Positions 16,153 to 45,257 of a stretch of 64,000 nucleotides of DNA are shown piece by piece. Position numbers and translations under genes: made by a program. The DNA comes from Aureimonas sp. ME7. GTDB taxonomy: Bacteria > Pseudomonadota > Alphaproteobacteria > Rhizobiales > Rhizobiaceae. Below the pieces are notes generated by a model. The model saw only the letters and a program-made list of their open reading frames with translations, searched no databases and had not been told where the DNA came from. The stretch spans positions 124,001 to 188,000 of the forward strand of contig NZ_CAJCKW010000001.1 of NCBI RefSeq assembly GCF_903970965.1, read 5' to 3'. The stretch's first letter is position 1. Every line of letters begins with the position of its first letter.

Positions 16153-17049
16153 TCAGCGCGCGCCCTTCACGCTCTCCTCCAGCCAGCTCCGGAACCGCGC
16201 GAAGGCGGGGCGCTCCGTGCTGCGGTCGGGGTAGACCAGCGTATAGGGGGCGGCGAGGCGCATGACGCGGGGCGACGCCAAGGTGAGGAGCCCGGCCTCC
16301 AGCTCGCGCCGGACTGCGAAGTCGGGCACCAGCGCGACGCCGAGCCCGGCGAGCGCCCCTTCCACCACGGTCGCGAACTGGTCGAAGCGGTGCCCGCGCA
16401 GGATGTCGCGCGCGTCGATGCCTGCTTCCCGAAACCATTCCAGCCACAGGGTCGGGCGCGTCGCCTGCTGGAGAAGGGGAAGGCGTAAGAGCGCGCTCGC
16501 GTCGGAAAGCGTGTCCTCCTCTATCAGGCGAGGGCTGGCGACGGCGAGGAGCCGGTCGTCCTCCAGCGCGAGCGATCCGAAGCCGGCGGGGCGCTGGTCG
16601 GTGCGCCGGATGGCGGCGTCGAACCCGTCGGTTTCCACTCCCCCGAACACGAGCCGGGCGGCGATGTTGAGGCTGATCGCGGGCTCGAGGCTGGAAAAGG
16701 CCTGGAGGCGCGGCACCAGCCAGCGCGAGGCGAAGGTCGGCAGGACGGCAAGGTTCAGGATCTCCGTGCGCCCGCCGAACGCCATGGTCTTCACAGTCGC
16801 TTCGTCCAGATGGCGCAGGATCGCCCTGGCGTCGGTCGCGAACAACCGGCCGGCGTCGGACGGGACGAGGCGCTTGCGAACGCGATGGAAGAGGGAAACG
16901 CCGAGCTTCTCCTCCAGGAGGGCGAGCGAGCGGCTGACCGTGCTCTGCGTCAGGGCCAGCGCCTCGGCGGCGCTCGTCACCGAGCCCTTTTCCATGCAGG
17001 CGACGAAGGCTTGGAGTTCGGAGATCGTCGGCTGGTAGCTCGTGCGCAT
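16153..17049 (-). CDS. LysR-family regulator, probable regulator of glutaryl-CoA dehydrogenase
   Basis: 298-residue GcvA-like LysR regulator: helix-turn-helix in about 10-65 (KGSVTSAAEALALTQSTVSR), then a substrate-binding domain to the end. It is divergent from the glutaryl-CoA dehydrogenase / CoA-transferase operon, so control of glutarate or lysine-derived acyl-CoA catabolism is likely. Start ATG 17049 is chosen: the longer frames (17064, 17085) would begin inside a perfect palindrome that looks like the operator. Confidence 0.85.
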   Translation of the reverse strand: MRTSYQPTISELQAFVACMEKGSVTSAAEALALTQSTVSRSLALLEEKLGVSLFHRVRKRLVPSDAGRLFATDARAILRHLDEATVKTMAFGGRTEILNLAVLPTFASRWLVPRLQAFSSLEPAISLNIAARLVFGGVETDGFDAAIRRTDQRPAGFGSLALEDDRLLAVASPRLIEEDTLSDASALLRLPLLQQATRPTLWLEWFREAGIDARDILRGHRFDQFATVVEGALAGLGVALVPDFAVRRELEAGLLTLASPRVMRLAAPYTLVYPDRSTERPAFARFRSWLEESVKGAR

Positions 17050-17058
17050 GGGTGAGAA

Positions 17059-17081
17059 GTTCATCGAATTCTTCGATGAAC
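17059..17081. promoter_or_regulatory. Candidate LysR operator (perfect 9-bp inverted repeat)
   Basis: GTTCATCGA (17059-17067), spacer ATTCT, TCGATGAAC (17073-17081): a perfect palindrome with the T-N11-A character of LysR boxes, 10 bases upstream of the LysR start and about 80 bases upstream of gcdH. Confidence 0.65.
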
Positions 17082-17161
17082 TCAAGCGCTATCATCGTTT
17101 GCCCGGAAGGGTCGGCGGGGTTTAGGAAGGACACCACATATCGAAAGGGAGAAGCGAACCC

Positions 17162-18391
17162 ATGTCCGCCCTGCCGACGCAAGATACCGAGCGCTCCGCA
17201 TCCGCACCGTCCCCCGCCGCCTTCGACTGGGCCGATCCGTTCCGGTTGGAGGATCAACTCACCGAGGACGAGCGGCTGATCTTCGAGACGGCGAGCCAGT
17301 TCGCCGAGGAACGGCTTCGCCCTCGCATCGTCGATGCCTACCGAAACGAGACGACCGACCCGTCGATCTTCCGCGAGATGGGCGAGCTCGGGCTTCTCGG
17401 CGTGACGCTGCCGGCCGAGTTTGGCTGCGCCGAGGCGTCTTATGTCGCCTACGGGCTGGTGGCACGCGCGGTGGAGCGGGTGGATTCGGGCTACCGCTCG
17501 ATGATGTCGGTCCAGTCCTCGCTCGTCATGTACCCGATCCACGCCTACGGGACGGCCGAGCAGCAGGCGAAGTATCTGCCGAGGCTCGCGTCCGGCGAAT
17601 GGATCGGCTGCTTCGGGCTGACAGAGCCCGACGCCGGCTCCGACCCCGGCGGCATGCGCACGCGCGCCGAGCGCACGTGCGAAGGCTATCGCCTCCACGG
17701 GGCGAAGACCTGGATCTCCAACGCGCCGATCGCCGACGTCTTCGTGGTCTGGGCGAAGTCAGACGCCCATGACGGGGCCATTCGCGGCTTCGTTCTCGAC
17801 AAGGGCACGAAGGGGCTGTCGGCCCCGAAGATCGAGGGCAAGCTCTCTTTGCGCGCCTCCATCACCGGCGAGATCGTGCTCGACGGCGTGGAGGTCGGCG
17901 AGGATGCGCTTCTGCCCAACGTGTCGGGCCTCAAGGGGCCGTTCGGCTGCCTCAACCGGGCACGCTACGGCATTTCCTGGGGCGCGATGGGCGCGGCGGA
18001 AGACTGCTGGCACCGCGCGCGCACCTATACGCTGGACAGGACGCAGTTCGGCCGCCCGCTGGCCCAGACGCAGCTCGTCCAGCGCAAGCTCGCCGACATG
18101 CAGACCGAGATCGCGCTGGGGCTCCAGGCGAGCCTGCGGGTGGGGCGCCTGTTCGACGAGGGGCGGATGGCGCCTGAGATGATCTCGCTCGTGAAGCGCA
18201 ACAACTGCGGCAAGGCGCTCGCCATCGCGCGCGAAGCGCGCGACATGCATGGCGGCAATGGCATCATGGGCGAGTACCACGTGATGCGCCACGCGCAGAA
18301 CCTCGAAACGGTCAACACCTACGAGGGCACGCACGACGTCCACGCCCTGATCCTCGGCCGGGCCCAGACCGGGCTCCAGGCCTTCTTCTGA
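17162..18391 (+). CDS. gcdH: Glutaryl-CoA dehydrogenase
   Basis: Flavoprotein that oxidises and decarboxylates glutaryl-CoA to crotonyl-CoA, feeding electrons to ETF. At 409 residues it has the ACAD architecture: N-terminal helices (about 30-150), beta domain with [16 protein letters not shown], and C-terminal helices ending with [17 protein letters not shown], whose Glu (about 388) is the catalytic base. [15 protein letters not shown] is characteristic of the GCDH branch rather than generic acyl-CoA dehydrogenases. The stop overlaps the next start by one base (TGATG), so the two genes are co-translated. Final steps of lysine, hydroxylysine and tryptophan breakdown use this enzyme. Confidence 0.93.
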
Positions 18392-19542
18392 TGGACGGGG
18401 GCGACCGCTCCGCGCCGCTTCGCGGAATCAAGGTCCTCGAACTCGCGCGCATCCTCGCCGGACCCTGGATCGGCCAGACGCTCGCCGATCTCGGCGCCGA
18501 GGTGATCAAGGTCGAGGCGCCGGAAGGCGACGACACGCGCCGCTGGGGGCCGCCCTTCGTGGAGCACGGGGGCGAGCGGGTCGCGGCCTATTTCCACGCC
18601 TGCAACCGGGGCAAGCGCTCGGTGGTGGCCGACTTCTCGACGCCCGAAGGCTGCGCGCTGGTGCGTCGGCTGGCCGGCGAGGCCGACGTTCTCGTCGAGA
18701 ACTTCAAGGTCGGGGGCCTTCGTAAATTCGGGCTCGACTACGAGACCCTGAGCGCGACCAACCCGCGCCTCGTCTACTGCTCCGTCACAGGCTTCGGGCA
18801 GGACGGGCCTTATGCCGCGCGCGCCGGCTACGACTTCATGATCCAGGCGATGTCGGGCATCATGGACCTCACCGGCGAGCCGGACGGCCAGCCCCAGAAG
18901 ATCGGCGTCGCCTTCGCCGATATCTTCACCGGCCTCTACGGGACGATCGCGATCCAGGCGGCGCTGCGAAAGCGCGAGGCGACGGGGCGCGGCGACCATA
19001 TCGATATGGCGCTGATGGACGCGATGACCGGCGTTCTCGCAAACCAGGCGTTGAACTACTTCGCCGGCGGCACGGCCCCCAAACGCCTCGGCAACGCCCA
19101 TCCCAACATCGTGCCCTACCAGAGCTTCGCGGTCGCCGACGGCCACATCGTGATCGCCTGCGGCAACGACCGGCAGTTCGCGCGCTTGGCCACGATCATC
19201 GGCGAGTCGGATTTGGCGGGGGACCCTCGCTTTGCCACCAACGAGGCGCGCGTCGCCCATCGCGCGGGCCTGATCGCGATCATGGAAGGGCGCATGCGCC
19301 TGATGACGCGCGACGCGCTGCTTGGCCAACTGGAGCGCGAGGGCGTGCCGGCCGGGCCGATCAACACGCTTGCCGACGTCTTCGCCGACCCGCAGGTTCG
19401 CCATCGCGGCATGCGTATCGAGCCCGGCGGCGTGCCGGGCCTGCGCACGCCGATCCGCTTCGCGGGCGCCGACCTGTCGTTGGAGCGTCCCTCGCCGCGC
19501 CTCGGCGAGATGGATGGCGAGGGCGGCTTCGGCGTCCCTTAG
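18391..19542 (+). CDS. CaiB/BaiF CoA-transferase, probably glutarate CoA-transferase
   Basis: Class III CoA-transferase of 383 residues. Family hallmarks: LARILAGPWIGQTLADLGAE at the N-terminus, CNRGKRS, GFGQDGPYA, and the catalytic Asp in VAFADIFTG (about Asp177). One-base overlap with gcdH strongly suggests it makes glutaryl-CoA from glutarate, like the animal SUGCT enzyme and bacterial relatives. The CoA donor (succinyl-CoA in SUGCT) is inferred. Its stop codon overlaps the stop of the convergent kinase gene. Confidence 0.87.
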   Translation: MDGGDRSAPLRGIKVLELARILAGPWIGQTLADLGAEVIKVEAPEGDDTRRWGPPFVEHGGERVAAYFHACNRGKRSVVADFSTPEGCALVRRLAGEADVLVENFKVGGLRKFGLDYETLSATNPRLVYCSVTGFGQDGPYAARAGYDFMIQAMSGIMDLTGEPDGQPQKIGVAFADIFTGLYGTIAIQAALRKREATGRGDHIDMALMDAMTGVLANQALNYFAGGTAPKRLGNAHPNIVPYQSFAVADGHIVIACGNDRQFARLATIIGESDLAGDPRFATNEARVAHRAGLIAIMEGRMRLMTRDALLGQLEREGVPAGPINTLADVFADPQVRHRGMRIEPGGVPGLRTPIRFAGADLSLERPSPRLGEMDGEGGFGVP

Positions 19543-20594
19543 CCGAACCCGCAGGCCTGCCGCAGGATCGCGATGCCCTCGCCGCGCGAAAGTTCGGCGC
19601 AGCGCCCGATCGCCATGGCGGCGCGGGCGCGGTTGCGCAGGATATAGGGCGCGTTCTCGGGGTAGCGGTGCGCACGCCATTCGCCGATCGTGATCGACAT
19701 CGCATGGCGGGTCTGGATCAGGTCGAAGAGGTGATCGAGCTCGCCCTCCGGCACCGGATGAACGGCATGATAGGCCGACACGAGCTCGACGACAGGGGCC
19801 AGCGGCGGGCCGTCCGCACCCACTTGATAGGACGCGGCAACCGCCAGATCGTAGATCGCCGGGGTCGCGACGAGATCGCCGAAGTCGAGGATGCCGGTGA
19901 TCCGGTCCGGGTCGGTTTCGTCCACCAGGATGTTGAACGGGTTGAAGTCGTTGTGAACCACCTGGTGCCGAAAGCCCGGCTCCGCCGGCTGGATCCGGGT
20001 CACGAAGCGCGCGAACACCGCCTCGACGCGATCGCGAAGGTCGCGGTCGGCGATGTGATGGGTGAGGGGCACCAGCTGGGCGGCGCGGCGGATGTCCCAG
20101 ACGATGTCGTGGTCTTCCGACGGGTGGTGGAACGTTTCGAGCGCGCGGGCGAGGCGGCCGAGCATTTGCCCGAGCGCGCGCATCTGCGTGCCCGTCTGGG
20201 GCGCGCCGTAGAGGGGGCGTCCGGGAAGCCAGGTCAGAAGCCGGGCGAAATGGGCGTTGCCGTCCCTTTGGGCGAGGAACTCGTGCGCGCCGTCGAGGCC
20301 CGGCACGAGGCGCGAGGCGGGCACCTCCGGTGCCGCCCCTTCCAGATGGCGGAGCGCGCGGTTCTGAAACTCCGCGACGCCCGGATCCTCGGCCGCGTTG
20401 GCGATCTTGAGGACGAAGCTCTCCCCATCGGCGGCGTCGAGGCGCGCGGTCAGGTCCCGCTCGCTGGTGAGAAGGGTGGCGCGCGTTTCCAGCCCGTAGC
20501 GATCGCGCACCAAAGCTACGAGCTCGGACAGGGTGAAGGCCGGCGCGCTGGTCGTGAAGATTGGGTTCGGCTGGGCGGTCGGTGTGGCGGACAT
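19539..20594 (-). CDS. APH-fold kinase resembling hydroxylysine kinase
   Basis: 351-residue aminoglycoside-phosphotransferase-fold kinase. Brenner motif VVHNDFNPFNILV and the metal motif GILDFGDLV are intact; LLTWLPGRPLYG, FHHPSEDHD and the C-terminal YPENAPYILRNR are stretches I associate with the animal hydroxylysine kinase (HYKK/AGPHD1) rather than antibiotic kinases. HYKK uses GTP to phosphorylate 5-hydroxy-L-lysine. The divergent neighbour is a phospho-lyase-type aminotransferase, the enzyme that acts next in that route. The two genes share a 325-base control region with two candidate GntR operators. Alternative: a homoserine-kinase-like kinase of a related amino alcohol. Confidence 0.78.
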   Translation of the reverse strand: MSATPTAQPNPIFTTSAPAFTLSELVALVRDRYGLETRATLLTSERDLTARLDAADGESFVLKIANAAEDPGVAEFQNRALRHLEGAAPEVPASRLVPGLDGAHEFLAQRDGNAHFARLLTWLPGRPLYGAPQTGTQMRALGQMLGRLARALETFHHPSEDHDIVWDIRRAAQLVPLTHHIADRDLRDRVEAVFARFVTRIQPAEPGFRHQVVHNDFNPFNILVDETDPDRITGILDFGDLVATPAIYDLAVAASYQVGADGPPLAPVVELVSAYHAVHPVPEGELDHLFDLIQTRHAMSITIGEWRAHRYPENAPYILRNRARAAMAIGRCAELSRGEGIAILRQACGFG

Positions 20595-20688
20595 GCCGGC
20601 ATCGTCCTGAAGGGGCAGGGAAGGGGAAAGGCGCTGGGTCGATCGTCGCGCGAGAATGGCAATCGGACACCGGACCTAGCTTCTGTTT

Positions 20689-20708
20689 TGATATACCATA
20701 TACGAAGG
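20689..20708. promoter_or_regulatory. Candidate GntR operator, site A
   Basis: Contains ATACCATATACGAAGG (20693-20708), matching 14 of 16 bases of ATATCATATACGAATG upstream of the gntR gene. It sits in the divergent region between the kinase and phospho-lyase genes. Confidence 0.55.
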
Positions 20709-20799
20709 AAGTCAATCGGTGGGCGAGGCTCCTCCTCGTATCAGGAGCTTGTCCACGAGCGGCAAAACCTATGACGATTGCACGTTGCCTACGCCTAAG

Positions 20800-20820
20800 A
20801 TTGGTATATCATGCACCAAT
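20800..20820. promoter_or_regulatory. Candidate GntR operator, site B
   Basis: ATTGGT (20800-20805) and ACCAAT (20815-20820) form a perfect inverted repeat with a 9-base spacer. The core ATATCATGCACCAA (20806-20819 region) shares 11 of 14 bases with the site upstream of the gntR gene. Located 100 to 120 bases before the phospho-lyase start. Confidence 0.55.
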
Positions 20821-20919
20821 TCATCGATGTCGACCTGCTTTCGGCAGTCGATGCGATCGTGCTGGCCTGCCGTTTCCATCATGGACGGAGCCGCTTCGTT
20901 TCCCCTTGGAGTCGCCCCG

Positions 20920-22254
20920 TTGAGCGCTGCCCCCGACCTTTCGATGCCGAACGCCTTCGTCGCCGGTCGCGGCGATGTCTCGCCCGAAAACCTCGGCCTG
21001 ATCGAGCGCCGCGCCCGGGTGCTCGGCCCGGCCTACCGGCTGATGTACGAATCCCCGCTCCATCTGGTTCGGGGGGAGGGCGTCTGGCTCTACGACGAAA
21101 CGGGCCGGCCCTATCTCGACGCCTACAACAACGTCACCTCGCTCGGGCACTGCCATCCGCGCGTCGTGGAGGCGATCCGCGCGCAGGTCGGCATTCTCGC
21201 CACCAACACGCGCTACCTCCACACCGCGATCCTCGACATGGCGGAAAAGCTCGTCGCGACCTTCCCCCCCGAGCTGTCCCAGGTGATGTTCGCCTGCACG
21301 GGCAGCGAGGCGAACGATCTGGCGCTGCGCATCGCCAGGGCGTTCACGGGCGGCACCGGGATCATCGTCACCGAAAACGCCTATCACGGGATCACGGAAA
21401 GCGTCGCGGCCTTCTCTCCCTCGCTCGGGCCCTCCGTCGATCTCGGGCCCCATGTGCGCACCGTTCAGGCACCGGGCGCCTATCACATGGGCGGCCGGGA
21501 CGTCGGCGAGGCGTTCCGCGAAAGCGTCGAGGCCGCCATCGCCGACCTGAAGCGCCACGGCATCAAACCGGCCGTCCTGATCGTCGACACGCTCTTCACC
21601 AGCGACGGAGTCCTGCCGGGGCCGGCGGGTTTCCTCCAAGGCGCAGCCGACGCCATCCGTGCCGCCGGCGGGCTCTTCATCGCCGACGAGGTGCAACCCG
21701 GCTTCGGGCGCACGGGCGAGGCGATGTGGGGCTTCGAGCGCCACGACGTCCTGCCGGACATGGTGACGCTCGGTAAGCCGATGGGCAACGGCCAGCCGAT
21801 CTCGGCCGTGGTGATGCGGCCGGAAGTTGTCGAGCACTTCGGCCGCAACGCGCGCTACTTCAACACGTTCGGCGGCAATGCCGTGTCCTGCGCGGCGGCG
21901 AGCGCCGTCCTGGAAGCGATTGCGGCGGAGGGCCTGCAGCGGAACGCGCTGGAAACCGGGCGCTATCTCTTGGAGGGCGTCCGGGCGGCCTGCGAGGGCG
22001 ACGAGGGCGTCGGCGACGTTCGCGGCGTCGGCTTCTTTCTCGGCGTCGAGTTCGTGGCGAACCGGGAAACCCGTGCGCCGGACCGCGAGCGGGCGGGCCG
22101 CGTCGTCAACGCCATGCGCGAGCGCGGCGTCCTGATCTCGGTGTCTAGCAAGCACCACAACAGCCTGAAGATCCGCCCGCCCCTGGTCTTCACCCGCGAG
22201 AACGCCGATCTCTTCGTCTCCACCTTGAAGGAATGCTTGAGCGCGTCCGCCTGA
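20920..22254 (+). CDS. Class III PLP phospho-lyase resembling 5-phosphohydroxylysine phospho-lyase
   Basis: PLP enzyme of the class III aminotransferase fold, 444 residues. The stretches YLDAYNNVTSLGHCHPRVVE, NTRYLH, CTGSEANDLALRIAR and YHGITES match the AGXT2L1/AGXT2L2 subgroup, which are not transaminases but eliminate phosphate and ammonia from phosphoethanolamine or 5-phosphohydroxylysine. PLP lysine in LGKPMGNGQP (about 286). Start: TTG 20920 has GGAG at 20908-20911; ATG 20881 is the alternative but lacks a ribosome site; the frame further upstream is not protein-like. With the adjacent kinase this would yield 2-aminoadipate semialdehyde. Conventional transaminase activity cannot be excluded. 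Confidence 0.82.
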   Translation: MSAAPDLSMPNAFVAGRGDVSPENLGLIERRARVLGPAYRLMYESPLHLVRGEGVWLYDETGRPYLDAYNNVTSLGHCHPRVVEAIRAQVGILATNTRYLHTAILDMAEKLVATFPPELSQVMFACTGSEANDLALRIARAFTGGTGIIVTENAYHGITESVAAFSPSLGPSVDLGPHVRTVQAPGAYHMGGRDVGEAFRESVEAAIADLKRHGIKPAVLIVDTLFTSDGVLPGPAGFLQGAADAIRAAGGLFIADEVQPGFGRTGEAMWGFERHDVLPDMVTLGKPMGNGQPISAVVMRPEVVEHFGRNARYFNTFGGNAVSCAAASAVLEAIAAEGLQRNALETGRYLLEGVRAACEGDEGVGDVRGVGFFLGVEFVANRETRAPDRERAGRVVNAMRERGVLISVSSKHHNSLKIRPPLVFTRENADLFVSTLKECLSASA

Positions 22255-22264
22255 ACCGGCGCGT

Positions 22265-22951
22265 TCAGGCCGGGGCGGTGGCTTTGCGCTCCGCCTTCTC
22301 CAGGGCCTGGAGGTGCGGGACGAGGAGACGGCCGGCCGTCGCGAGATCGGCCACGATGCCGGCGCGCGCGCTCCGCCCGTCGCCGCGCTCCAGGGCTTCG
22401 ACGATCGCGCGGTGCGCCTCGTTGGCATGCGCCTCGTAGGCCGGCGCGCCGAAGAGCTCCTTCATGTAGGGGCCGGTCTGGCTCCACAGGTCCTGGATCA
22501 GTTGGAACAGGCGCGGGGAGCCCGCCTCGGCGTAGATCGCGAAGTGGAACGCCTGGTTTTCCCGGCGATAGCTGTCGTGGTCGCCTCTTCTCAGGCTGTC
22601 GTCCATCCCGGCCAAGAGCTTGCCGAGCCGCCGGAGCGCCGCTTTGCCGATGCGCGAGGCGGCGAGTTCCGCCGCAAGCCCCTCCAGTTCGCTGCGAATC
22701 CGGGCGATCTCGGCATACTTGTCCGCTTCCAGCGCCGGCACGGCGATCGAGCGGTTGGGAAGGAGCTGGAGCAGGCGCTCGGCGACGAGCCGTTGCAGCG
22801 CCTCGCGAACCGGCGTCGTGGAAATGCCGTAAGCCTCCGCCAGCGTGCGGATCACCAGCACCTGGCCGGGATGGAACGAGGCCGCCATCAGGCCCTCGCG
22901 GATGCGCTCGTAGGCGAGGTCGTTGAGGGTACGGTACTCGATTTTGGACAC
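22265..22951 (-). CDS. GntR-family (FCD) regulator
   Basis: 228-residue FadR-subfamily regulator: winged helix (about 10-75; RTLAEAYGISTTPVREALQRL) and an all-helical FCD ligand domain with metal-type residues in ENQAFHFAIYAEAG and NEAHRAIVEAL. It converges with the phospho-lyase gene, 10 bases between stops. The same sequence motif occurs upstream of this gene and twice in the kinase/phospho-lyase divergent promoter, so it probably represses itself and those genes. Confidence 0.9.
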   Translation of the reverse strand: MSKIEYRTLNDLAYERIREGLMAASFHPGQVLVIRTLAEAYGISTTPVREALQRLVAERLLQLLPNRSIAVPALEADKYAEIARIRSELEGLAAELAASRIGKAALRRLGKLLAGMDDSLRRGDHDSYRRENQAFHFAIYAEAGSPRLFQLIQDLWSQTGPYMKELFGAPAYEAHANEAHRAIVEALERGDGRSARAGIVADLATAGRLLVPHLQALEKAERKATAPA

Positions 22952-26660: not shown

Positions 26661-26666
26661 ACCCGC

Positions 26667-33361: not shown

Positions 33362-34654
33362 TTAGCGAAAGAGCTCCGGCTTTTCCAGCCGGAGCGCCGC
33401 GGCCCGGCGATGCCCTTCGAGCCCCTCCGATGCGCTCTGGCGCGAAGCGGGCGGGGCGACGGCCGCAACGCCCTCGTCGGTGAGCCACTGGTGCGTCGCG
33501 ATCTTCACATAGGACCCGACCCAGAGGCCGCCGGTGTAGCGCCCCGCGCCCATGGTCGGCAGCGTGTGGTTGGTGCCACAGCATTTGTCGGAGTAGACGA
33601 CGCTCGCCTTGGTCCCGATGAAGAGCGAGCCGTATCCGGTGAGCCGGGCCGCCAGCGCCTTCGGGTCGCGGGTGTGGACCTGGAGATGCTCGGCGGCGAT
33701 CCAGTCGGAATAGGCGACGAGATCGTCCTCCGACGCGCACACGGCGATCTCGCCCTGTCGCTCCCAGGAGACGCGTGCGACGTTCGCGGTGGAAAGCGTT
33801 TCGAGCTGGCGCTCGATCTCGTGCACCACGGCCTCGGCCAGCGGGCGGTGGGTGGTGATGAGGCCGACGCGCGTGTGGACGTCGTGCTCGGCCTGCGCCA
33901 GGAGATCGGTCGCGATCACCTCGGCATTCCCCGTTTCGTCGGCCAGCGTGTAGATCTCGCTCGGGCCCGCCAGCTGGTCGATGCCGACCGGGCCGAACAC
34001 CTGGCGCTTGGCCTCGTTCACATAGGCATTGCCGGGGCCGACGATCTTGTGAACGGCAGGGATCGTTTCCGTCCCATAGGCCATGGCGGCGATCGCCTGC
34101 GCCCCGCCGACGCGGAAGATGCGGGTGGCGCCCGACAGGTGGCAGCCCGCGATCATGGCATCTGCCGCCGTCGGCGGCAGGCAGGCGATGATCTCGGCGC
34201 AGCCCGCGACCACGGCCGGCACGATCGTCATGATCGGCGCCGACAGGAGGGGGTAGCGCCCGCCCGGCACATAGGCGCCGACGCGTGCCACCGGAATGAC
34301 GCGGTGGCCGAGATGGAGCCCTGGCGCAAGCTCGATCTCGAGTGGCAGGATGGTCTTCAACTGGGCCTTCGCAAACGCGCGCACGTTGCCGATGGCGAAC
34401 TCGGTGTCGGCCCGCGTCTGGGGGTCGAGCGCGGCGACCGCCGCTTCGCGCTCCGCCTGCGTCACCTCGAAGGCGTCCGGCGCTACCTTGTCGAAGGCCT
34501 GCGAATAGCGCCGTACCGCCGCATCGCCTTCGCCGCGCACCGCCTGCAGTACGTCGGCGACGGTCTGCGAAACGTCGGCCTGCGTTTTCGTGTCGGCCGT
34601 GGACGCCTTCACGAAGGTGAGTCGCTTGCGAAGGGTTTCGATCTCGGGGGTCAT
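33362..34654 (-). CDS. HisD-family NAD-dependent dehydrogenase (not the biosynthetic enzyme by context)
   Basis: 430-residue member of the histidinol dehydrogenase family. Seen: GAYVPGGRYPLLSAPIMTI, GGAQAIAAMAYGTETIP, KIVGPGNAYVNEAKRQVFG, DQLAGPSEI, AQAEHD and CCGTNHTLPTMGAGRYTGG. Glu/His catalytic and zinc-ligand regions are conserved, so it is an active alcohol dehydrogenase. No his biosynthesis genes are near; it is divergent from an XRE-cupin regulator and a polyamine-type importer, as for catabolic paralogues such as sulfopropanediol dehydrogenase HpsN. Start ATG 34654 has AAGGA nine bases upstream. Substrate unknown. Confidence 0.85.
   Translation of the reverse strand: MTPEIETLRKRLTFVKASTADTKTQADVSQTVADVLQAVRGEGDAAVRRYSQAFDKVAPDAFEVTQAEREAAVAALDPQTRADTEFAIGNVRAFAKAQLKTILPLEIELAPGLHLGHRVIPVARVGAYVPGGRYPLLSAPIMTIVPAVVAGCAEIIACLPPTAADAMIAGCHLSGATRIFRVGGAQAIAAMAYGTETIPAVHKIVGPGNAYVNEAKRQVFGPVGIDQLAGPSEIYTLADETGNAEVIATDLLAQAEHDVHTRVGLITTHRPLAEAVVHEIERQLETLSTANVARVSWERQGEIAVCASEDDLVAYSDWIAAEHLQVHTRDPKALAARLTGYGSLFIGTKASVVYSDKCCGTNHTLPTMGAGRYTGGLWVGSYVKIATHQWLTDEGVAAVAPPASRQSASEGLEGHRRAAALRLEKPELFR
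33373..33395 (-). terminator. Hairpin in the 3' end of the HisD-family gene
   Basis: GCTCCGGCT (33373-33381), loop TTTCC, AGCCGGAGC (33387-33395): a perfect 9-bp stem just inside the coding end. On the minus strand it is followed by TCTTTC and then the stop, so it may end the dehydrogenase transcript. Weak U-tract. Confidence 0.35.
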
Positions 34655-34711
34655 CCCAGGCATTCCTTGCCGCTGTTTGCGGCAGGACGCTCGCAGATGC
34701 AGCATGGACCC

Positions 34712-34791: not shown

Positions 34792-35340
34792 ATGCCGGCG
34801 ATCGGGGCCGCCATCCGGGAACTCAGGCGTCGCCGGCAGCTGACGACGCGTCAGCTCGCGGTGCGCTCCGGGATTTCCCATTCCACCATCTCGCTTCTGG
34901 AGCGCGACCGCCTCAGCCCCTCCGTGGACACGCTCGGCGCGATCCTGGAGGCGATGGGCGCGACCTTGTCCGGCTTCTTCTCCGATGTCGGCGCGCAACT
35001 GCCCCATTCGCCCTTCTACGGCGCGGACGACCTGCCGGAGATCGGACGCGACGACGGGATCTCCTATCGTATGGTCGGCATCAACCATCCCAACCGACGC
35101 CTGCTTCTGCTGCGCGAAACCTATCGGCCGGGCGCCGATACGGGCGAAGCGTTCTCTCACAAGGCGCAGGAGGCGGGGATCGTGACCCGGGGCGTGGTGG
35201 AGGTGAGCGTCGGCGACCAGAAGAAGCTCCTGAAAGCGGGCGACGCGTATTACTTCGACAGCGAAACGCCGCACCGCTTCCGCAATCCCGGCTCCGAGCC
35301 GGCCGAGCTCATCAGCGCCATCACGCCGCCGACCTATTGA
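34792..35340 (+). CDS. XRE-cupin regulator (PuuR-like)
   Basis: 182-residue regulator: N-terminal XRE helix-turn-helix (about 5-60; TRQLAVRSGISHSTISLLER) and C-terminal cupin sensor (about 105-180; SHKAQEAGIVTRGVVEV, AGDAYYFDSETPHRFRN). Same architecture as PuuR, the putrescine-responsive repressor, and similar regulators of amino-compound catabolism. ATG 34792 with GGGAG six bases upstream is preferred to the in-frame TTG 34741. It precedes a polyamine-type ABC operon and is divergent from the dehydrogenase, both likely targets. Confidence 0.87.
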   Translation: MPAIGAAIRELRRRRQLTTRQLAVRSGISHSTISLLERDRLSPSVDTLGAILEAMGATLSGFFSDVGAQLPHSPFYGADDLPEIGRDDGISYRMVGINHPNRRLLLLRETYRPGADTGEAFSHKAQEAGIVTRGVVEVSVGDQKKLLKAGDAYYFDSETPHRFRNPGSEPAELISAITPPTY

Positions 35341-35436: not shown

Positions 35437-36486
35437 ATGACCCGCATCGGAATATCCAGGATCCTCGGTGGCCTCGTCGCCGCGACCCTTCTGACGGCCA
35501 CGCCCGTCCTGGCGCGCGACCTGACCGTGGTGTCCTGGGGCGGCAACTATCAGGACGCCCAGCGCGAGATCTACTTCAAGCCCTTCTCCGAAAAGGTCGG
35601 CAAGCCCGTCCTGGAAGAATCCTGGGACGGCGGCTACGGCGTCCTGTCGGCCAAGCTCCAGGCCGGCACGCCCAACTGGGACGCGGTCCAGGTCGAGGCC
35701 GAGGAACTGGCGCTCGGCTGCGCCGACGGTATCTACGAGCCGGTGGACTGGGGCAAGCTCGGCGGCGAGGATAAGTTCATCCCGTCCGCCGTCAACGAAT
35801 GCGGCGTCGGCGCGATCGTCTGGACCACGGGTCTCGGCTACGACGCCGATAAGCTGAAGGAAGCGCCGAAGAGCTGGGCGGACTTCTTCGACACCGCGAA
35901 GTTCCCCGGCAAGCGGGCGCTGCGCAAGGGCCCGAAATACGCCCTCGAATTCGCCCTGATCGCCGACGGCGTCGAGCCGAAGGAGGTTTACGAGGTTCTG
36001 GCGACCCCGGAGGGCGTCGACCGCGCCTTCCGGAAGCTCGACACGATCAAGAAGGACATCGTCTGGTGGGAAGCGGGCGCCCAACCGATCCAGCTCCTGG
36101 CGTCGGGCGAGGTGGTGATGACCTCGGCCTATAACGGACGTCTGGCCGGCATCAACAAGTCGGAAGGCAAGAACTTCCAGATCGTCTGGCCAGGCTCGAT
36201 CTACGCGGTGGATTCGTGGGTCGTCCTCAAGGGCTCGCCCAACAAGGACGAGGCCTTCGACTTCATCGCGTTCGCCAGCGACCCGGCCAACCAGTCGAAG
36301 CTGCCGGACTACATCGCCTACGGCCTGCCCAACAAGGCGGCGGGCGAGATGCTGAAAGCCGACGTCGCGGCCAACCTGCCGACGGCCCCCGCCAATCTCG
36401 ATGTCGCCATCCCGCTCGACACCGACTTCTGGGTCGACAACATCGAGGCGCTGAACACCCGCTTCAACGCCTGGGTCGCCCAGTAA
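35437..36486 (+). CDS. ABC importer solute-binding protein (polyamine/PotD type)
   Basis: 349-residue periplasmic binding protein with signal peptide (ISRILGGLVAATLLTATPVLA) followed by RDLTVVSWGGNYQDAQRE, the usual start of the spermidine/putrescine-type family. GGGGAG precedes ATG 35437. Although the fold is shared with polyamine-binding proteins, this subgroup also carries amino acids, opines, phosphonates and others, so the cargo is undefined. First gene of a four-gene importer operon. Confidence 0.88.
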   Translation: MTRIGISRILGGLVAATLLTATPVLARDLTVVSWGGNYQDAQREIYFKPFSEKVGKPVLEESWDGGYGVLSAKLQAGTPNWDAVQVEAEELALGCADGIYEPVDWGKLGGEDKFIPSAVNECGVGAIVWTTGLGYDADKLKEAPKSWADFFDTAKFPGKRALRKGPKYALEFALIADGVEPKEVYEVLATPEGVDRAFRKLDTIKKDIVWWEAGAQPIQLLASGEVVMTSAYNGRLAGINKSEGKNFQIVWPGSIYAVDSWVVLKGSPNKDEAFDFIAFASDPANQSKLPDYIAYGLPNKAAGEMLKADVAANLPTAPANLDVAIPLDTDFWVDNIEALNTRFNAWVAQ

Positions 36487-36558: not shown

Positions 36559-37620
36559 ATGAAGAGCTTCATCCACTTCCAGGACGTGTCGAAATCCTTC
36601 GGGCAGACGAAGGTCGTCGAAAATCTGGATCTCGAAGTGGAGAAGGGGGAGTTCCTGTCGCTCTTGGGGCCATCGGGCTCGGGCAAGACCACGATCCTGA
36701 TGATGCTGGCGGGCTTCGAGAACGCGTCCTCGGGCACGATTCTGATGGACGGCGAGCGGATCGAGGACCTGCCGCCCCACCGGCGCGGCATCGGCGTCGT
36801 GTTTCAGAACTACGCCCTGTTTCCGCACATGACGATCGCCGAGAACGTCGCCTTTCCCCTGCAGATGCGAAAGCTCGGCAAGGCGGAAACGAAGGATCTC
36901 GTGGACAAGGCGCTCGACCGGGTGCGCCTCAAGCATCTGGCCGACCGGCGGCCCGATCAGCTGTCGGGCGGCCAGCAGCAGCGCGTGGCGCTGACGCGCG
37001 CGCTGGTGTTCGAACCCAAGGTCGTCCTGATGGACGAGCCGCTCGGCGCGCTCGACAAGCAGCTGCGCGAGGAGATGCAGCTCGAAATCCGCGAACTGCA
37101 CCGCCGCCTCGGCCTCACCGTCGTCTTCGTCACACATGACCAGGGCGAGGCGCTGACCATGTCGAACCGGATCGCGATCTTCGACAAGGGCCGGATCGCG
37201 CAGATCGGCACGGCAACGCAAGTCTACGACCATCCGCAGAACGCCTTCGTCGCGCGGTTCATCGGCGAAACCAATCTCCTGCCCGCGCGCGTTTCGAGCG
37301 CGCAGGCGAGCGGCCTCGTTCTCGACCTCGGCGAGGGCGTCGCCTTGAGCGCTTCGCAAGCGCCGAGCTTTCTTGCCGGAACGCAGGTGATGGTCTCCGC
37401 TCGCCCCGAGCGCCTGCATCTTCAAGACGCGAACGCGCCCGGCACGATCGCGATGGAGGTGGACGACGTGGTGTATCAGGGCGACCACCTGCGCCTGCAC
37501 CTGTCGCGCGGGAGCCTGCGCCTGATCGCGCGCGCCGAGCGGCGCCTCCTGCCTCCGAGCGTCGGAGGAGCGGTGGGCGTGTCGGTCGATCCCGCCGACG
37601 TCGCGGTGTTCGCGGCATGA
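36559..37620 (+). CDS. ABC importer ATPase (PotA type)
   Basis: 353-residue ATPase with Walker A GPSGSGKTTI, signature LSGGQQQRVALTRAL, Walker B VVLMDEPLGALD and switch His in VFVTHDQGEA; a C-terminal TOBE domain follows from about residue 280 (MVSARPERLHL). Overlaps the first permease by four bases (ATGA). Powers uptake with the neighbouring permeases. Confidence 0.93.
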   Translation: MKSFIHFQDVSKSFGQTKVVENLDLEVEKGEFLSLLGPSGSGKTTILMMLAGFENASSGTILMDGERIEDLPPHRRGIGVVFQNYALFPHMTIAENVAFPLQMRKLGKAETKDLVDKALDRVRLKHLADRRPDQLSGGQQQRVALTRALVFEPKVVLMDEPLGALDKQLREEMQLEIRELHRRLGLTVVFVTHDQGEALTMSNRIAIFDKGRIAQIGTATQVYDHPQNAFVARFIGETNLLPARVSSAQASGLVLDLGEGVALSASQAPSFLAGTQVMVSARPERLHLQDANAPGTIAMEVDDVVYQGDHLRLHLSRGSLRLIARAERRLLPPSVGGAVGVSVDPADVAVFAA

Positions 37621-38795
37621 CGCGCGCCGGCTCCTCCTTGCGCAGCGCGGCGCTGATCGCGCCCTTGTTCCTGTTTCTCGCGCTCTTCTTCCTGTGGCCG
37701 CTTTGGACCATGGTCTCGGTGTCCATGCGCGATCCGGCGGTCGCTGCCGCGCTGCCGCGCACGGCCGCCGCGATCTCGTCCTGGAGCGGCGAGGGCGTGC
37801 CGGACACGGATACGCAAGGGGCGCTCCTTGCCGACCTGCGCGAAACGGACGCCGTGGCGCTCGGCGGCGCCGTGCGGCGTTTGAACAGCGAGGTTTCGGG
37901 CTTTCGCACCCTGATCCCCAAGACGCAGCGCGCCGCAAAGGATGGCGCGCCGGGTGCGCCGGCCGATCTCGCCGCGCTCGACAAGCGCTGGGCCGATCCC
38001 GCCTTCTGGACGGCGATCCGCAACGCCTCCTCCGCTTACACCGACCGGAACCTTTTGGCGGCCGTCGACCTGACCAGGAACGACGCCGGTTCCATCGAAA
38101 GCCTGCCCCCGGGAAGCTCGGCCAACCGCCTGATCATCGGGCGCACCTTTCTGATCGCGGGCACGATCACCCTGTGCTGCCTCCTGATCGGTCTGCCCTA
38201 CGCCATGCTGATGGCGGCCGTGACGGGCTGGAAGCGCAACCTCCTTCTGATGGCCGTCCTCCTGCCGCTCTGGACCTCGCTTCTGGTGCGCACCGCCGCC
38301 TGGTTCATCCTCCTCCAGGACCAGGGCGTCATCAACGGCGCGCTCCAGGCGCTGGGTCTCGCGAGCGGGCCCCTGCCGCTGATCTTCAACCGGACCGGCG
38401 TCGTCGTCGCCATGACGCATGTGCTCCTGCCCTTCATGGTCCTGCCGATCTATTCGGTGCTGAACACCATCCCGAAGACGCTGATGCCGGCCGCCGCCTC
38501 CATGGGGGCGCCGCCGCTCAAAGCCTTCCGGCGCATCCTCCTGCCGCTCGCCATGCCCGGCATCCTGTCCGGCTCGCTTCTCGTCTTCATGGTGGCGATC
38601 GGCTACTACATCACGCCCGCCCTCGTCGGCGGCCCGAACGACCAGATGATCTCCTCGATCATCGCCTTCTACGCCCTGCAAACGGCCAACTGGGGCATGG
38701 CGGGCGCGCTCGGGCTGATCCTCCTCGTGGTGACGACGGTGCTCTACGTCGTCTACGGCCGTCTGTCGCGCGGCTCGACGCCCGTGGGAGCCTGA
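37617..38795 (+). CDS. ABC importer permease (PotB type)
   Basis: 392-residue inner-membrane permease. TM1 at about 15-35 is followed by an unusually long periplasmic stretch (about 38-170, soluble and Ala/Asp rich) before the typical membrane domain with the EAA loop (MGAPPLKAFRRILLPLAMPG). The long loop is common in a subset of PotB-like proteins. Six bases separate it from the second permease gene. Confidence 0.9.
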   Translation: MTRAGSSLRSAALIAPLFLFLALFFLWPLWTMVSVSMRDPAVAAALPRTAAAISSWSGEGVPDTDTQGALLADLRETDAVALGGAVRRLNSEVSGFRTLIPKTQRAAKDGAPGAPADLAALDKRWADPAFWTAIRNASSAYTDRNLLAAVDLTRNDAGSIESLPPGSSANRLIIGRTFLIAGTITLCCLLIGLPYAMLMAAVTGWKRNLLLMAVLLPLWTSLLVRTAAWFILLQDQGVINGALQALGLASGPLPLIFNRTGVVVAMTHVLLPFMVLPIYSVLNTIPKTLMPAAASMGAPPLKAFRRILLPLAMPGILSGSLLVFMVAIGYYITPALVGGPNDQMISSIIAFYALQTANWGMAGALGLILLVVTTVLYVVYGRLSRGSTPVGA

Positions 38796-38800: not shown

Positions 38801-39583
38801 ATGTTGCGTGGCTTCCAAACCGTCTTCGGTGCGTTCGCGGTGGTGTTCCTGCTTCTGCCGCTCGTCGCCATCCTGCCGCTCGCCTTCACCTCCGGCATCT
38901 TCCTGAACTATCCGATCCCTTCCTTTTCGGGGCGCTGGTTCACCGAGCTCGCGACCGTCGGCGTCTGGCGGCTCGCGATCGTCAACAGCCTCGTGATCGG
39001 GTCGGGCGCGACGATCCTATCTGTGGTGCTGGGAACGCTGGCCGCGCTCGGGCTTCGAAACGGGATCCTGCCGTTCCCGAACCTCCTGCGCACCGTGTTC
39101 CTCCTGCCCATGGTGGTGCCGGCCGTGGTGCTGGGCGTCGGGCTGCAGATCTCGCTCGGGCGGCTCGGCCTCACGAGCAGCTACATCGGCGTCATCCTCG
39201 CCCATACGGTCCTGTGCGTGCCCTTCGTGGTGGTCTCCGTGTCCACCGCGCTCCAGGGCATCGACCGGCGGGTGGAGCGCGCGGCGGCAAGCCTTGGGGC
39301 CTCGCCCGCCACCGTGTTTCGCCGCGTCACCTTTCCGCTCGCCCTGCCCGGCATGGTGACGGGGGCCGTGTTCGCCTTCGCCACCTCGCTCGACGAGGTC
39401 GTGCTGACGCTCTTCGTCGCCGGACCCAACCAGCGCACGCTGGCGCGGCAGATGTTCTCCACCATCCGCGAGAACATCTCGCCCGCCATCGCGGCGGCGG
39501 CCTTCGTCCTGATCGTGGGCACGCTGCTCCTGGGCGCTCTCGTTCTGTTCATGAACCGGCGTCGGCGTCGAGCCACGGTGTGA
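38801..39583 (+). CDS. ABC importer permease (PotC type)
   Basis: 260-residue permease with about six membrane helices and an EAA loop (AAASLGASPATVFRRVTFPL). Start ATG 38801 lies just after the previous stop. Completes the importer. The next gene begins after 134 bases, so the molybdenum-hydroxylase genes may have a separate promoter. Confidence 0.91.
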   Translation: MLRGFQTVFGAFAVVFLLLPLVAILPLAFTSGIFLNYPIPSFSGRWFTELATVGVWRLAIVNSLVIGSGATILSVVLGTLAALGLRNGILPFPNLLRTVFLLPMVVPAVVLGVGLQISLGRLGLTSSYIGVILAHTVLCVPFVVVSVSTALQGIDRRVERAAASLGASPATVFRRVTFPLALPGMVTGAVFAFATSLDEVVLTLFVAGPNQRTLARQMFSTIRENISPAIAAAAFVLIVGTLLLGALVLFMNRRRRRATV

Positions 39584-43383: not shown

Positions 43384-43874
43384 GGCGCCCGTGCCGTCCG
43401 GCCACCAACGGAACACGATGAACGATCCGAACCGCGACATCGGCCGAAGCCCGCGAGATCGGGTGCCGGGCAGCGAAGCCGGGACGCGACCCGGGGCCCG
43501 CGCCGGCATCGCCCTTCGGTGCGAGCGTCCGCGATCGGGCGGCGATGCTCCGGGGAGCGGGGCTCGCCGGGAAAACGCGCATCGGCGTGCGGCGGCGTCC
43601 CGCCTCGCGCGACGGGTCGTCCGGGCTTCTGTTCGGGGAGGGCGTGGGCGACCGTCGCGTTTTCCGGACCGATTTCGGCAGGACATGCCGGCCGCCGTCC
43701 CCGTTTCGGGTTGCGGGCGCGCGCGAAACGGCGATGATCGGTCTTCAGGACACCGTTTCCGGCGATGCCGGAACGAGCGGCTTCCCGCCGCAACCGCCTT
43801 CGCCTCGTAGGATCGGCCCGCATTCCGGCGTATGGTCCCGCGTTCCCATCGGCTTCAGCTTCGGACGGTTGATC
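43384..43874. other. 491-base gap with no convincing gene
   Basis: Between the molybdenum hydroxylase and the transaminase. Open frames exist (for example a start at 43418 to 43810) but they are Arg/Gly/Pro-rich out-of-frame composition of GC-rich DNA, without family resemblance or ribosome site. No clear hairpin or operator seen. It may hold the transaminase promoter or a long leader. Confidence 0.5.
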
Positions 43875-45257
43875 ATGGACACACTCTCGAACTCGCTCGC
43901 GGCGGCCGACATCGCCCATACGCTCCACCCCAACACCAACCTGCGCGCCCACGAGGCGAACGGGCCGCTGGTGATCGCCAGGGGCGAAGGCATCCGCGTC
44001 TACGACGACCGGGGCAAGGAGTATATCGAGGGGCTGGCGGGCCTCTGGTCCGTGGGCGTCGGCTTCTCGGAAAAGCGGCTGGCGGACGCGGCCTACGCCC
44101 AGATGCTGAAGCTGCCCTACTACCACACGTTCACATCCAAATCGAACGAGCCCTCGATCCGCCTTGCCGAGAAGCTGGCCGAGATCACGCCCGAACCCCT
44201 CACGCGCGCCTTCTTCACCTCGTCCGGGTCGGAGGCCAACGACACCATCGTCAAGATGGTGTGGTACATGAACAATGCGCTGGGGCGGCCGAACAAGAAG
44301 AAGTTCCTCGCCCGCACCAAGGGCTATCACGGCATCACGGTCGCGTCGGGCTCGCTCACCGGTCTGCCGGTCAACCACCGCGACTTCGACCTGCCGGCGA
44401 TCCCCGTGCGCCACCTGACCTGCCCCCACTTCTACCGCTTCGGGGCTGAGGGCGAAGACGAGGCGGCGTTCACGCAGCGCCTCCTCGCCGAGCTGGAAAG
44501 CGTCATCGCCGAGGAGGGCGCGGATACGATCGCCGCCTTCATCGGCGAGCCGCTGATGTCGGCCGGCGGCGTGATGCCGCCGCCCGCCGGCTACTGGGAA
44601 GGTGTGGAGCGGATCTGCCGCGCCAACGACATCCTTCTCGTGTCCGACGAGGTGATCTGTGGCTTCGGGCGCCTCGGCACCCCCTTCGGCTGCCAGAAAT
44701 ACGGCTTCACGCCCGATATCATGACCCTGTCGAAGCAGATCACCTCTTCCTACATGCCGCTCGCGGCCGTGATGATCTCGGATGCGGTCTACAATGCCAT
44801 CGCCGACAATTCCGCCCGGCTCGGCGTCTTCGGCCACGGCTTCACCGCTTCTGGGCACCCGGTGTCCACCGCCGTCGCCCTCGAAAACATCGCGATCATC
44901 GAGGAAAAGGACCTCATCGGCAACGCCGCCCGTTTGGAGGGCGCCTTCCAGGCGGGCCTTCGGTCCTTCGCCGACCATCCGCTGGTGGGCGAGGCGCGGG
45001 GCGCGGGGCTGATCGGCGCCCTGGAGCTCGTCGCCGACAAGGCGGCCAAGCGCCCCTTCGAGAAGGTGGGCCGCGCCGGCCAGCTTGCGGCCGCGATCGG
45101 CCACGAGGAAGGGCTGATCTTCCGCTCCATCGGCGACCAGCTGGCGCTCTGCCCGCCGCTGATCGTCACCGAGAGCGATGTCGGCGAGATCATGGCGCGG
45201 ATGGGCCGGACGCTGGAGCGCCTGGAAGGCGCGGTGGCGGCCGAGAACCTCCGGTGA
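43875..45257 (+). CDS. Class III aminotransferase (amino-group donor:pyruvate/omega-aminotransferase type)
   Basis: 460-residue PLP transaminase. Class III landmarks: GLAGLWSVGVGFSEKRLADA, FFTSSGSEANDTIVKMVWY, TKGYHGITVASGSLTG, VSDEVICGFGRLG and the PLP lysine in LSKQITSSYMP (about 287). Closest in feel to the putrescine/omega-amino acid:pyruvate transaminases. Following a polyamine-type importer, deamination of a terminal amine is plausible. ATG 43875 is the family start. GTGA overlap with the next gene links their translation. Confidence 0.88.
   Translation: MDTLSNSLAAADIAHTLHPNTNLRAHEANGPLVIARGEGIRVYDDRGKEYIEGLAGLWSVGVGFSEKRLADAAYAQMLKLPYYHTFTSKSNEPSIRLAEKLAEITPEPLTRAFFTSSGSEANDTIVKMVWYMNNALGRPNKKKFLARTKGYHGITVASGSLTGLPVNHRDFDLPAIPVRHLTCPHFYRFGAEGEDEAAFTQRLLAELESVIAEEGADTIAAFIGEPLMSAGGVMPPPAGYWEGVERICRANDILLVSDEVICGFGRLGTPFGCQKYGFTPDIMTLSKQITSSYMPLAAVMISDAVYNAIADNSARLGVFGHGFTASGHPVSTAVALENIAIIEEKDLIGNAARLEGAFQAGLRSFADHPLVGEARGAGLIGALELVADKAAKRPFEKVGRAGQLAAAIGHEEGLIFRSIGDQLALCPPLIVTESDVGEIMARMGRTLERLEGAVAAENLR

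What the first reader, a model, noticed from the sequence alone, without database searches (positions are those of the whole stretch)
17162..22951. Possible bacterial hydroxylysine-to-glutaryl-CoA module mirroring the animal pathway
Four enzymes whose animal counterparts act in one pathway are side by side: a hydroxylysine-kinase-like APH kinase (19539-20594), a phospho-lyase of the AGXT2L subgroup (20920-22254), glutaryl-CoA dehydrogenase (17162-18391) and a CaiB-type glutarate CoA-transferase (18391-19542), plus GntR and LysR regulators. Seen: motifs such as FHHP, LPGRP and HNDFNPFNILV in the kinase, and YNNV, GHCHP and SGSEANDLALR-type strings in the lyase. Established: HYKK and PHYKPL convert 5-hydroxylysine to 2-aminoadipate semialdehyde; GCDH and SUGCT act on glutaryl-CoA and glutarate. 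Inference: collagen-derived or free hydroxylysine is the substrate. The 2-aminoadipate semialdehyde dehydrogenase, aminotransferase and 2-oxoadipate dehydrogenase steps are not in the window.
Basis: partly seen in the sequence, partly recalled or inferred. Interest (0 to 1): 0.8.

Follow-up and report, generated by a model that had tools for sequence, protein, structure and literature searches.

The report
Bacterial amine-removal kinase–lyase beside glutarate genes
Bacteria of the genus Aureimonas carry a kinase and a phosphate-ejecting lyase, with a regulator of their own, right beside the genes that burn glutarate; the enzymes resemble the human hydroxylysine-breaking pair, but what they really eat is still open and hydroxylysine is not the best-supported guess.

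Summary
In detail: LysR, glutaryl-CoA dehydrogenase (GCDH), glutarate CoA-transferase, an APH-fold kinase, a class-III PLP phospholyase and a GntR regulator lie where stated. The lyase's best solved relatives are two phospholyases (5g4i, 6tor). The block is in 9 of 21 Aureimonas genomes, once with a lyase from another clade, so the link to glutarate genes is probably functional. In relatives it extends to a HisD-like dehydrogenase and a GABA-type ABC importer (window 33362-39583). Kinase and lyase share a gap with two TGRTATAYCA sites, kept in relatives and found nowhere else in this genome. The proposed 'animal pathway' is only partly supported. GCDH, CoA-transferase and LysR have the known gcdR-gcdH-gcoT arrangement. 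The 2-aminoadipate steps exist elsewhere in the genome but run through HglS to 2-oxoglutarate, bypassing glutaryl-CoA; none of 142 lyase neighbourhoods held their marker genes. Importer and CoA-transferase fit better a hydroxylated five-carbon omega-amino acid (for example 5-amino-4-hydroxyvalerate) giving glutarate semialdehyde. No result here shows the substrate.

The parts
16153..17085 (-). LysR-type regulator, divergent from GCDH (position of gcdR)
   Evidence: arrangement as gcdR-gcdH-gcoT, PMC6667623 passages; orthology to GcdR not tested
17162..18391 (+). glutaryl-CoA dehydrogenase (gcdH)
   Evidence: 564 bits to human GCDH; match in 18 of 21 Aureimonas genomes
18391..19542 (+). class III CoA-transferase, succinate--glutarate type (gcoT/gcdG, SUGCT-like)
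19539..20594 (-). APH-fold small-molecule kinase (HNDxxxxN and DFGD motifs)
   Evidence: AF2 pLDDT 93.1; among the nearest folds homoserine kinase 2ppq, amicoumacin kinase, aminopropanol kinase 6ef6
20689..20698 (.). predicted GntR operator 1, TGATATACCA
20802..20811 (.). predicted GntR operator 2, TGGTATATCA (inverse copy of operator 1, 113 bp away)
20920..22254 (+). class III PLP-dependent phospholyase-type enzyme (TTG start)
22265..22951 (-). GntR/FCD regulator, predicted to act on the kinase-lyase unit
   Evidence: the operator pair is missing in G006 and G001, whose blocks lack this gene
33362..34663 (-). histidinol-dehydrogenase paralogue, closest solved relative a sulfopropanediol (DHPS) dehydrogenase
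   Evidence: next to kinase-lyase in relatives
34792..35340 (+). PuuR-like XRE/cupin regulator
35437..36486 (+). periplasmic binding protein of the GABA-binding group (PotD-like)
36559..37620 (+). ABC transporter ATPase (PotA-like)
37617..38795 (+). ABC permease (PotB-like)
38801..39583 (+). ABC permease (PotC-like)
43869..45257 (+). class III omega-aminotransferase (PRK06105); directly follows the importer genes in AU20, G006 and five other genomes of the genus

Best explanation
A conserved catabolic island made of three units that each have a regulator. Unit 1 (kinase + lyase, GntR): the kinase phosphorylates the hydroxyl of an amine of the form R-CH(OH)-CH2-NH3+, and the PLP phospholyase ejects phosphate and ammonia to leave the aldehyde R-CH2-CHO. 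Unit 2 (LysR-gcdH-CoA-transferase): free glutarate is made into glutaryl-CoA and then crotonyl-CoA. Unit 3 (HisD-like enzyme, PuuR-like regulator, GABA-type ABC importer, omega-aminotransferase): brings in and trims an omega-amino acid or amino alcohol. Most likely joint logic (inferred): the phospholyase product is a five-carbon semialdehyde that is oxidised to free glutarate and burned by unit 2; the simplest substrate is 5-amino-4-hydroxyvalerate or a relative made from hydroxylysine or an imported compound. Shown: gene content, families, conservation, repeated coupling, the conserved site pair. Inferred: enzyme reactions (from families) and GntR binding. Not shown: the substrate, and the enzyme that oxidises the semialdehyde.
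For: Lyase: 364 and 334 bits to phospholyases 5g4i and 6tor, next PDB hit 173 bits; the fold search ranks the same two first. Among the 80 loci found by the lyase alone a kinase is adjacent in 39. The block is in 9 of 21 Aureimonas genomes. The lyase of G001 is from another clade (AU p 0.0003 against one clade) although its binding protein is 90% identical: re-coupling or replacement in place. On the lyase tree the GCDH link arises at least 2 times, the HisD link 3, the importer link 11. Importer gene in 6 of 39 lyase-found loci with adjacent kinase and 0 of 41 without. The Arg and Asp of the GABA site of Pf622 (PMC12999171, passages) are kept in the binding protein (R235 in 14 of 14 aligned, D259 in 13 of 14). 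Importer-linked kinase-lyase loci of Microvirga and Rouxiella hold a GABA transaminase (over the TIGR00700 cut-off), those of G289 and G111 an aldehyde dehydrogenase whose best models are succinate-semialdehyde and 2,5-dioxovalerate dehydrogenase (both under cut-off). The exact site pair occurs only between kinase and lyase in the whole genome. In P. [quoted passage not shown]
Against: The GCDH link is seen only in Aureimonas (0 of 130 other loci), so part of it may be inherited neighbourhood; the kinase tree does not reject one clade (p 0.32); the lyase test named its group after the tree was seen. In five Aureimonas genomes the HisD-importer-aminotransferase unit stands without kinase-lyase, so its ligand need not be the kinase substrate. 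The site pair is only at kinase-lyase, so the three units probably have separate signals. Four wall residues of the GABA site differ (T13Y, F100I, F102W, W202Y; counted by eye), so the ligand need not be GABA-like in size. No glutarate-semialdehyde dehydrogenase is assigned.
Confidence: 0.42

Rival explanations
1. Hydroxylysine catabolism with a bacterial ending: kinase and lyase turn 5-hydroxylysine into 2-aminoadipate semialdehyde, which the genome's own cluster elsewhere oxidises, transaminates and converts by HglS to 2-hydroxyglutarate and 2-oxoglutarate; the glutarate genes serve the parallel lysine branch.
For: The downstream genes are present in the genome and two of them across the genus; the human lyase AGXT2L2 acts on phosphohydroxylysine (PMC9283133, passage; the primary paper was not held).
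Against: 142 lyase neighbourhoods gave no match to HglS or the hydroxyglutarate dehydrogenase and none best matched to the piperideine-6-carboxylate dehydrogenase; in Aureimonas these genes occur equally in genomes without the kinase, so linkage is not expected there and this evidence is weak. 5-Hydroxylysine is reported to go by the monooxygenase and racemase pathways in P. fluorescens (PMC12930750, passage).
Confidence: 0.22
2. One reading: a mirror of the animal pathway, hydroxylysine through 2-aminoadipate and 2-oxoadipate to glutaryl-CoA and GCDH.
For: Kinase, lyase, GCDH and CoA-transferase are adjacent and conserved in 9 of 21 genomes.
Against: 2-oxoadipate has an HglS exit in this genome; a CoA-transferase is not needed if glutaryl-CoA comes from 2-oxoadipate (inference); the marker genes of 2-aminoadipate breakdown were not found in the neighbourhoods. 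A 2-oxoadipate dehydrogenase was not searched for.
Confidence: 0.1
3. A general amino-alcohol utiliser (ethanolamine, 1-amino-2-propanol or similar); the glutarate operon is only a neighbour.
For: The nearest solved lyases are 5g4i and the human ethanolamine-phosphate lyase; nearest folds of the kinase include an aminopropanol kinase (6ef6, rank 6); units have separate regulators.
Against: The window lyase has NNVxS where both solved phospholyases have NNVxH (S in 88, H in 17 of 123 rows); 13 of the 15 H loci lack an adjacent kinase, 67 of 87 S loci have one. The role of this residue is not known to me. Coupling to gcdH and the CoA-transferase is seen with two different lyase clades.
Confidence: 0.16
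4. Unlinked genes side by side by chance: a transaminase and an unrelated APH kinase.
For: Separate regulators; the GCDH link is confined to one genus.
Against: Kinase adjacent in 39 of 80 lyase-found loci, fused forms of about 1000 aa, a shared conserved site pair.
Confidence: 0.1

Closest known systems
Human HYKK (AGPHD1) and PHYKPL (AGXT2L2), hydroxylysine kinase and phosphohydroxylysine lyase
   Same: Kinase plus class-III PLP phospholyase acting in sequence (lyase: PMC9283133 passage; kinase fold and sequence of steps recalled)
   Different: No sequence of either was available here, so relationship not tested; the bacterial pair is in a block with glutarate genes and a GABA-type importer
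Arthrobacter aurescens phospholyase A1RDF1 (5g4i) and human ETNPPL (6tor)
   Same: Best sequence and fold matches of the lyase
   Different: Different tree branches (both references are on long or basal branches); NNVxS instead of NNVxH
PRK06148/PRK06149 fused kinase-lyase proteins
   Same: Both halves match PRK06148 best of the NCBIfam models
   Different: Separate genes here, divergently transcribed; far below the model's whole-protein cut-off
gcdR-gcdH-gcoT of Pseudomonas putida KT2440
   Same: LysR gene next to gcdH on its own transcript, CoA-transferase co-transcribed with gcdH (PMC6667623 passages); same order here
   Different: Here joined to kinase-lyase and importer units; orthology of the LysR not tested
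Microcompartment aminopropanol kinase (6ef6)
   Same: Among the nearest folds of the kinase; that it has a partner phospholyase is recalled, not checked
   Different: 16% identical over the aligned part; microcompartment shell genes were not searched for here

Membership tests
glutarate operon gcdR-gcdH-gcoT | GCDH with CoA-transferase directly downstream and a LysR gene beside it | tested here: met
glutarate operon gcdR-gcdH-gcoT | LysR protein answers to glutarate | not testable with these tools
   needs assay; shown for P. putida only
class III PLP phospholyases (AGXT2L group) | closer to characterised phospholyases than to transaminases | tested here: met
   364 and 334 bits against 173 for the next PDB entry; first by fold
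class III PLP phospholyases (AGXT2L group) | releases phosphate and ammonia, no transamination | not testable with these tools
   needs assay
ethanolamine-phosphate lyase (ETNPPL type) | groups with 5g4i or 6tor and shares their NNVxH segment (feature proposed here, not an established criterion) | tested here: not met
   tree: S in window clade
phosphohydroxylysine lyase (PHYKPL) | groups with PHYKPL in a tree | not testable with these tools
   no PHYKPL sequence recognised among the 60 of 191 PDB matches shown
hydroxylysine kinase (HYKK) | groups with HYKK; phosphorylates 5-hydroxylysine | not testable with these tools
   no HYKK sequence at hand; best PDB match by sequence E 0.018
APH kinase superfamily | fold and catalytic motifs | tested here: met
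animal-type hydroxylysine-to-glutaryl-CoA pathway | 2-aminoadipate semialdehyde dehydrogenase, aminotransferase and 2-oxoadipate dehydrogenase linked to the module | tested here: not met
   dehydrogenase not linked in 142 stretches (three weak class-I aminotransferase matches of 96-100 bits there); the dehydrogenase and HglS lie elsewhere. 2-oxoadipate dehydrogenase itself was not searched for
GABA-type periplasmic binding proteins | Arg and Asp of the GABA site | tested here: met
   R235, D259; wall residues differ

The most novel reading that the evidence does not exclude
Aureimonas has an undescribed phosphorylation-elimination pathway for hydroxylated C5 omega-amino acids (5-amino-4-hydroxyvalerate or a close relative, perhaps from hydroxylysine or 5-aminolevulinate): import by a GABA-type ABC system, phosphorylation, loss of phosphate and ammonia to glutarate semialdehyde, then glutarate, glutaryl-CoA and crotonyl-CoA, with a HisD-like enzyme as one of the oxidising steps and a two-operator GntR switch.
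Probability: 0.25. Interest if true: 0.62.

Novelty: new variant of a known kind. Interest (0 to 1): 0.42.

Why it matters
Kinase-phospholyase pairs are frequent in bacteria (39 of 80 loci found by the lyase), and in the plasmid records seen they are annotated as 'phosphotransferase' and 'aminotransferase' or not at all. No paper listed in the open-access searches made here (listings, most with more hits than shown) was seen to assign a substrate to such a bacterial pair beside glutarate genes; that is no proof of absence from print. A block in which the pair is tied to glutarate genes narrows the substrate to compounds that can end as glutarate, which makes the question testable with a few assays and could help to re-annotate misnamed 'aminotransferases'.

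Tried and rejected
Considered and rejected: (1) ordinary transaminase: the lyase scores about twice as many bits against phospholyases as against the next PDB entry. (2) HisD-like gene as the histidine-biosynthesis gene: the genome holds three hisD-family genes and a better-scoring one on C9. (3) The hyu and sugar-ABC genes (23220-33365) as part of the pathway: hyu is at this place also in G008 but not in the six other relatives that can be read; the sugar ABC in none. (4) One common regulator: exact sites are only at kinase-lyase. (5) Further GCDH couplings outside the genus: none in 80 genome-contig loci, 37 order loci or 8 class loci; distant homologues only in L054 (147 and 75 bits), L108 and L167 (CoA-transferase 105 and 196 bits). 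The stretches held are 5-21 kb, some cut by contig ends.

Led nowhere: LysR operator search by eye in 17086-17161; active-site comparison (no coordinates of 5g4i/6tor in the box); VIA-align (not available); literature on bacterial hydroxylysine kinase.

Corrected on the way: kinase adjacency was counted by clustering and is too low (73 of 124). One search counts 98 of 141 by tblastn, but 61 of those 141 loci were fetched through the kinase or HisD (59 of them and 2 plasmid loci), so its totals (importer 23 of 98 against 0 of 43) are biased; one search gives the unbiased part (39 of 80; 6 of 39 against 0 of 41). G002 (L027) counts as not adjacent only because a contig end cuts its lyase. Alignment A2 held six rows read on the wrong strand and was replaced by A4. 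Four lyase ORFs outside 380-520 aa (L058, L078, L113, L164) were left out of the 123-row tree; the clade tests used 74 lyase rows, 5g4i among them, and 71 kinases, all on quick trees.
Full report
Observation. The window lies on contig C1 of a 4.38 Mb genome. The relatives identify the genus: G013 contig C2, 488,888 bases, has the length and the gene places of plasmid pAU20a of Aureimonas sp. AU20.

Enzyme identity. GCDH scores 564 bits against human GCDH. The CoA-transferase scores 544 bits on the succinate--glutarate CoA-transferase model, under its cut-off of 750, and 311 bits against 9br7. With the LysR gene beside GCDH this is the arrangement gcdR-gcdH-gcoT of P. putida (PMC6667623, passages). 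The lyase scores 364 and 334 bits against the solved phospholyases 5g4i and 6tor and 173 against the next entry; a model built from 14 sequences (pLDDT 85.8) gives the same two first. The kinase has no close solved relative by sequence (best E 0.018); its model (pLDDT 93.1) is an APH fold whose best matches are homoserine kinase, amicoumacin kinase and an aminopropanol kinase. Both halves match PRK06148 best, far under its whole-protein cut-off.

Conservation. Of 21 Aureimonas genomes, 11 have a kinase match. Nine, the window's included, have a kinase next to GCDH and the CoA-transferase: G000, G001, G002, G004, G006, G008, G010, G013, G016 (G002 is cut by a contig end). Three further kinases in the genus (G003, G014 and a second one in G008) are elsewhere, without the glutarate genes. 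GCDH occurs in 18 of 21 and the CoA-transferase in 18 of 21. In G011, G017 and G019 the two are adjacent without a kinase; in G005, G007, G012, G014, G015 and G018 they lie apart. Outside the genus none of 130 lyase loci has the two orthologues in the stretch held (141 loci, 11 of them Aureimonas, 8 of these with the pair; thresholds 500 and 450 bits).

Independent coupling. In G001 the binding protein is 90% and GCDH 79% identical to the window's, but the lyase is 56% and the kinase 37%. On the lyase tree G001 falls with the lyase of G074, of another family, and one clade for the eight is rejected (p 0.0003; the group was chosen after seeing the tree). The kinase tree gives the same nearest neighbour but does not reject one clade (p 0.32). 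The least numbers of changes on the lyase tree are 2 for the GCDH link, 3 for HisD and 11 for the importer; no shuffle control was run for these.

The wider block. In AU20 and others the block runs on through a HisD-like gene, a PuuR-like regulator, PotDABC-like importer genes and a class III aminotransferase; these are window 33362-39583 and 43869-45257, pushed apart by inserts. The HisD-like protein is nearer to a sulfopropanediol (DHPS) dehydrogenase (305 bits) than to HisD (269 bits). The binding protein is nearest to GABA binders. Of the GABA-site residues of Pf622 (PMC12999171, passages) W9, R205, D228 and Y264 are kept and T13, F100, F102 and W202 changed (by eye). Microvirga sp. VF16 has gabT, importer, HisD, lyase and kinase together; three genomes of another family have HisD, importer, kinase and lyase; five genomes of a further family have aminotransferase, importer, GntR, kinase, lyase and an SDR. 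Among the 80 loci found through the lyase, 39 have an adjacent kinase; the importer gene is in 6 of these 39 and in 0 of the 41 others. Against a tight link: in G005, G012, G014, G015 and G018 the HisD-importer-aminotransferase unit stands without kinase-lyase.

Regulation. Between kinase and lyase lie TGATATACCA (20689) and TGGTATATCA (20802). Exact pairs of TGRTATAYCA, 109-114 bp apart, occur in this gap in the window, G013, G004, G016, G010 and G002; G008 has one changed base in each (read by eye); G006 and G001, whose blocks lack the GntR gene, have none. There is none elsewhere in 580,808 bases of Aureimonas loci or in the whole window genome (the reversed control pattern has 3 places, so the pair's spacing and conservation matter more than its rarity). 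So kinase and lyase form a regulatory unit of their own; that GntR binds here is inferred.

Downstream steps. A piperideine-6-carboxylate (2-aminoadipate semialdehyde) dehydrogenase over its cut-off is in 21 of 21 and HglS in 19 of 21 genomes of the genus. In the window's genome one contig holds a class I aminotransferase (542 bits on PRK06107, under its cut-off), this dehydrogenase (804 bits, over), a D-2-hydroxyglutarate dehydrogenase (1051 bits on YdiJ, under its 1350) and HglS (738 bits, over). The dehydrogenase and an exit for 2-oxoadipate thus exist, but lead to 2-oxoglutarate. In 142 lyase neighbourhoods at E 1e-20, HglS and the hydroxyglutarate dehydrogenase gave no match, and no gene matched the piperideine-6-carboxylate dehydrogenase better than the other aldehyde-dehydrogenase queries; three weak class I aminotransferase matches (96-100 bits) appeared (one of the 142, L185, repeats another). 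A 2-oxoadipate dehydrogenase was not searched for.

Reading. The chemistry of the pair follows from the families. That its product ends as glutarate is inferred from the repeated neighbourhood; that free glutarate is meant is inferred from the CoA-transferase and from GcdR answering to glutarate in P. putida. 5-Amino-4-hydroxyvalerate is the simplest compound that would give glutarate semialdehyde directly; this is a chemical inference, and none of the 15 papers listed (of 201) held that term. Hydroxylysine remains possible, most simply with the HglS ending.

Literature. All paper searches were of an open-access library. I saw search listings with abstract starts (one search returned nothing) and passages; no paper was read whole. 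The paper that identified HYKK and the two lyases was not held and is recalled.

Noticed in passing
window 23220-28628: AraC regulator plus hyuA/hyuB (named from sequence) sit between GntR and HisD here and at the same place in G008 (L028, hyu 87-88% identical), absent there in the six other relatives that can be read.
   Followed up: partly
window 28654-33365: A sugar-type ABC transporter (named from sequence: binding protein, ATPase, two permeases) is inserted in the same gap; not found there in the relatives read.
   Followed up: no
window 39709-43383: A molybdenum-hydroxylase-like trio (judged from sequence only) lies between the importer and the aminotransferase; in AU20 and G006 these two are adjacent.
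   Followed up: partly
G000:C6:163415-165829 (L216): A second piperideine-6-carboxylate dehydrogenase beside an HglS remnant that matches only model positions 1-136 and 312-386.
   Followed up: no
L028 and L033 (G008): One Aureimonas genome has two unlike kinase-lyase pairs, only one beside glutarate genes.
   Followed up: partly
loci, e.g. L131, L134: Kinase matches inside open frames of about 1000 aa (PRK06148 size) in several genomes of the order.
   Followed up: no
L037, L038, L039, L040, L105: Nearest neighbours of the window lyases in the tree: kinase-lyase pairs with a haloacid-dehalogenase-type HAD protein and an Lrp regulator in Sphingomonas, Pseudomonas and Massilia, perhaps another substrate.
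   Followed up: no
lyase alignment, segment NNVx(S/H): Residue H in 17 and S in 88 of 123 rows; H includes both solved phospholyases, and 13 of its 15 loci lack an adjacent kinase: a possible specificity marker.
   Followed up: partly
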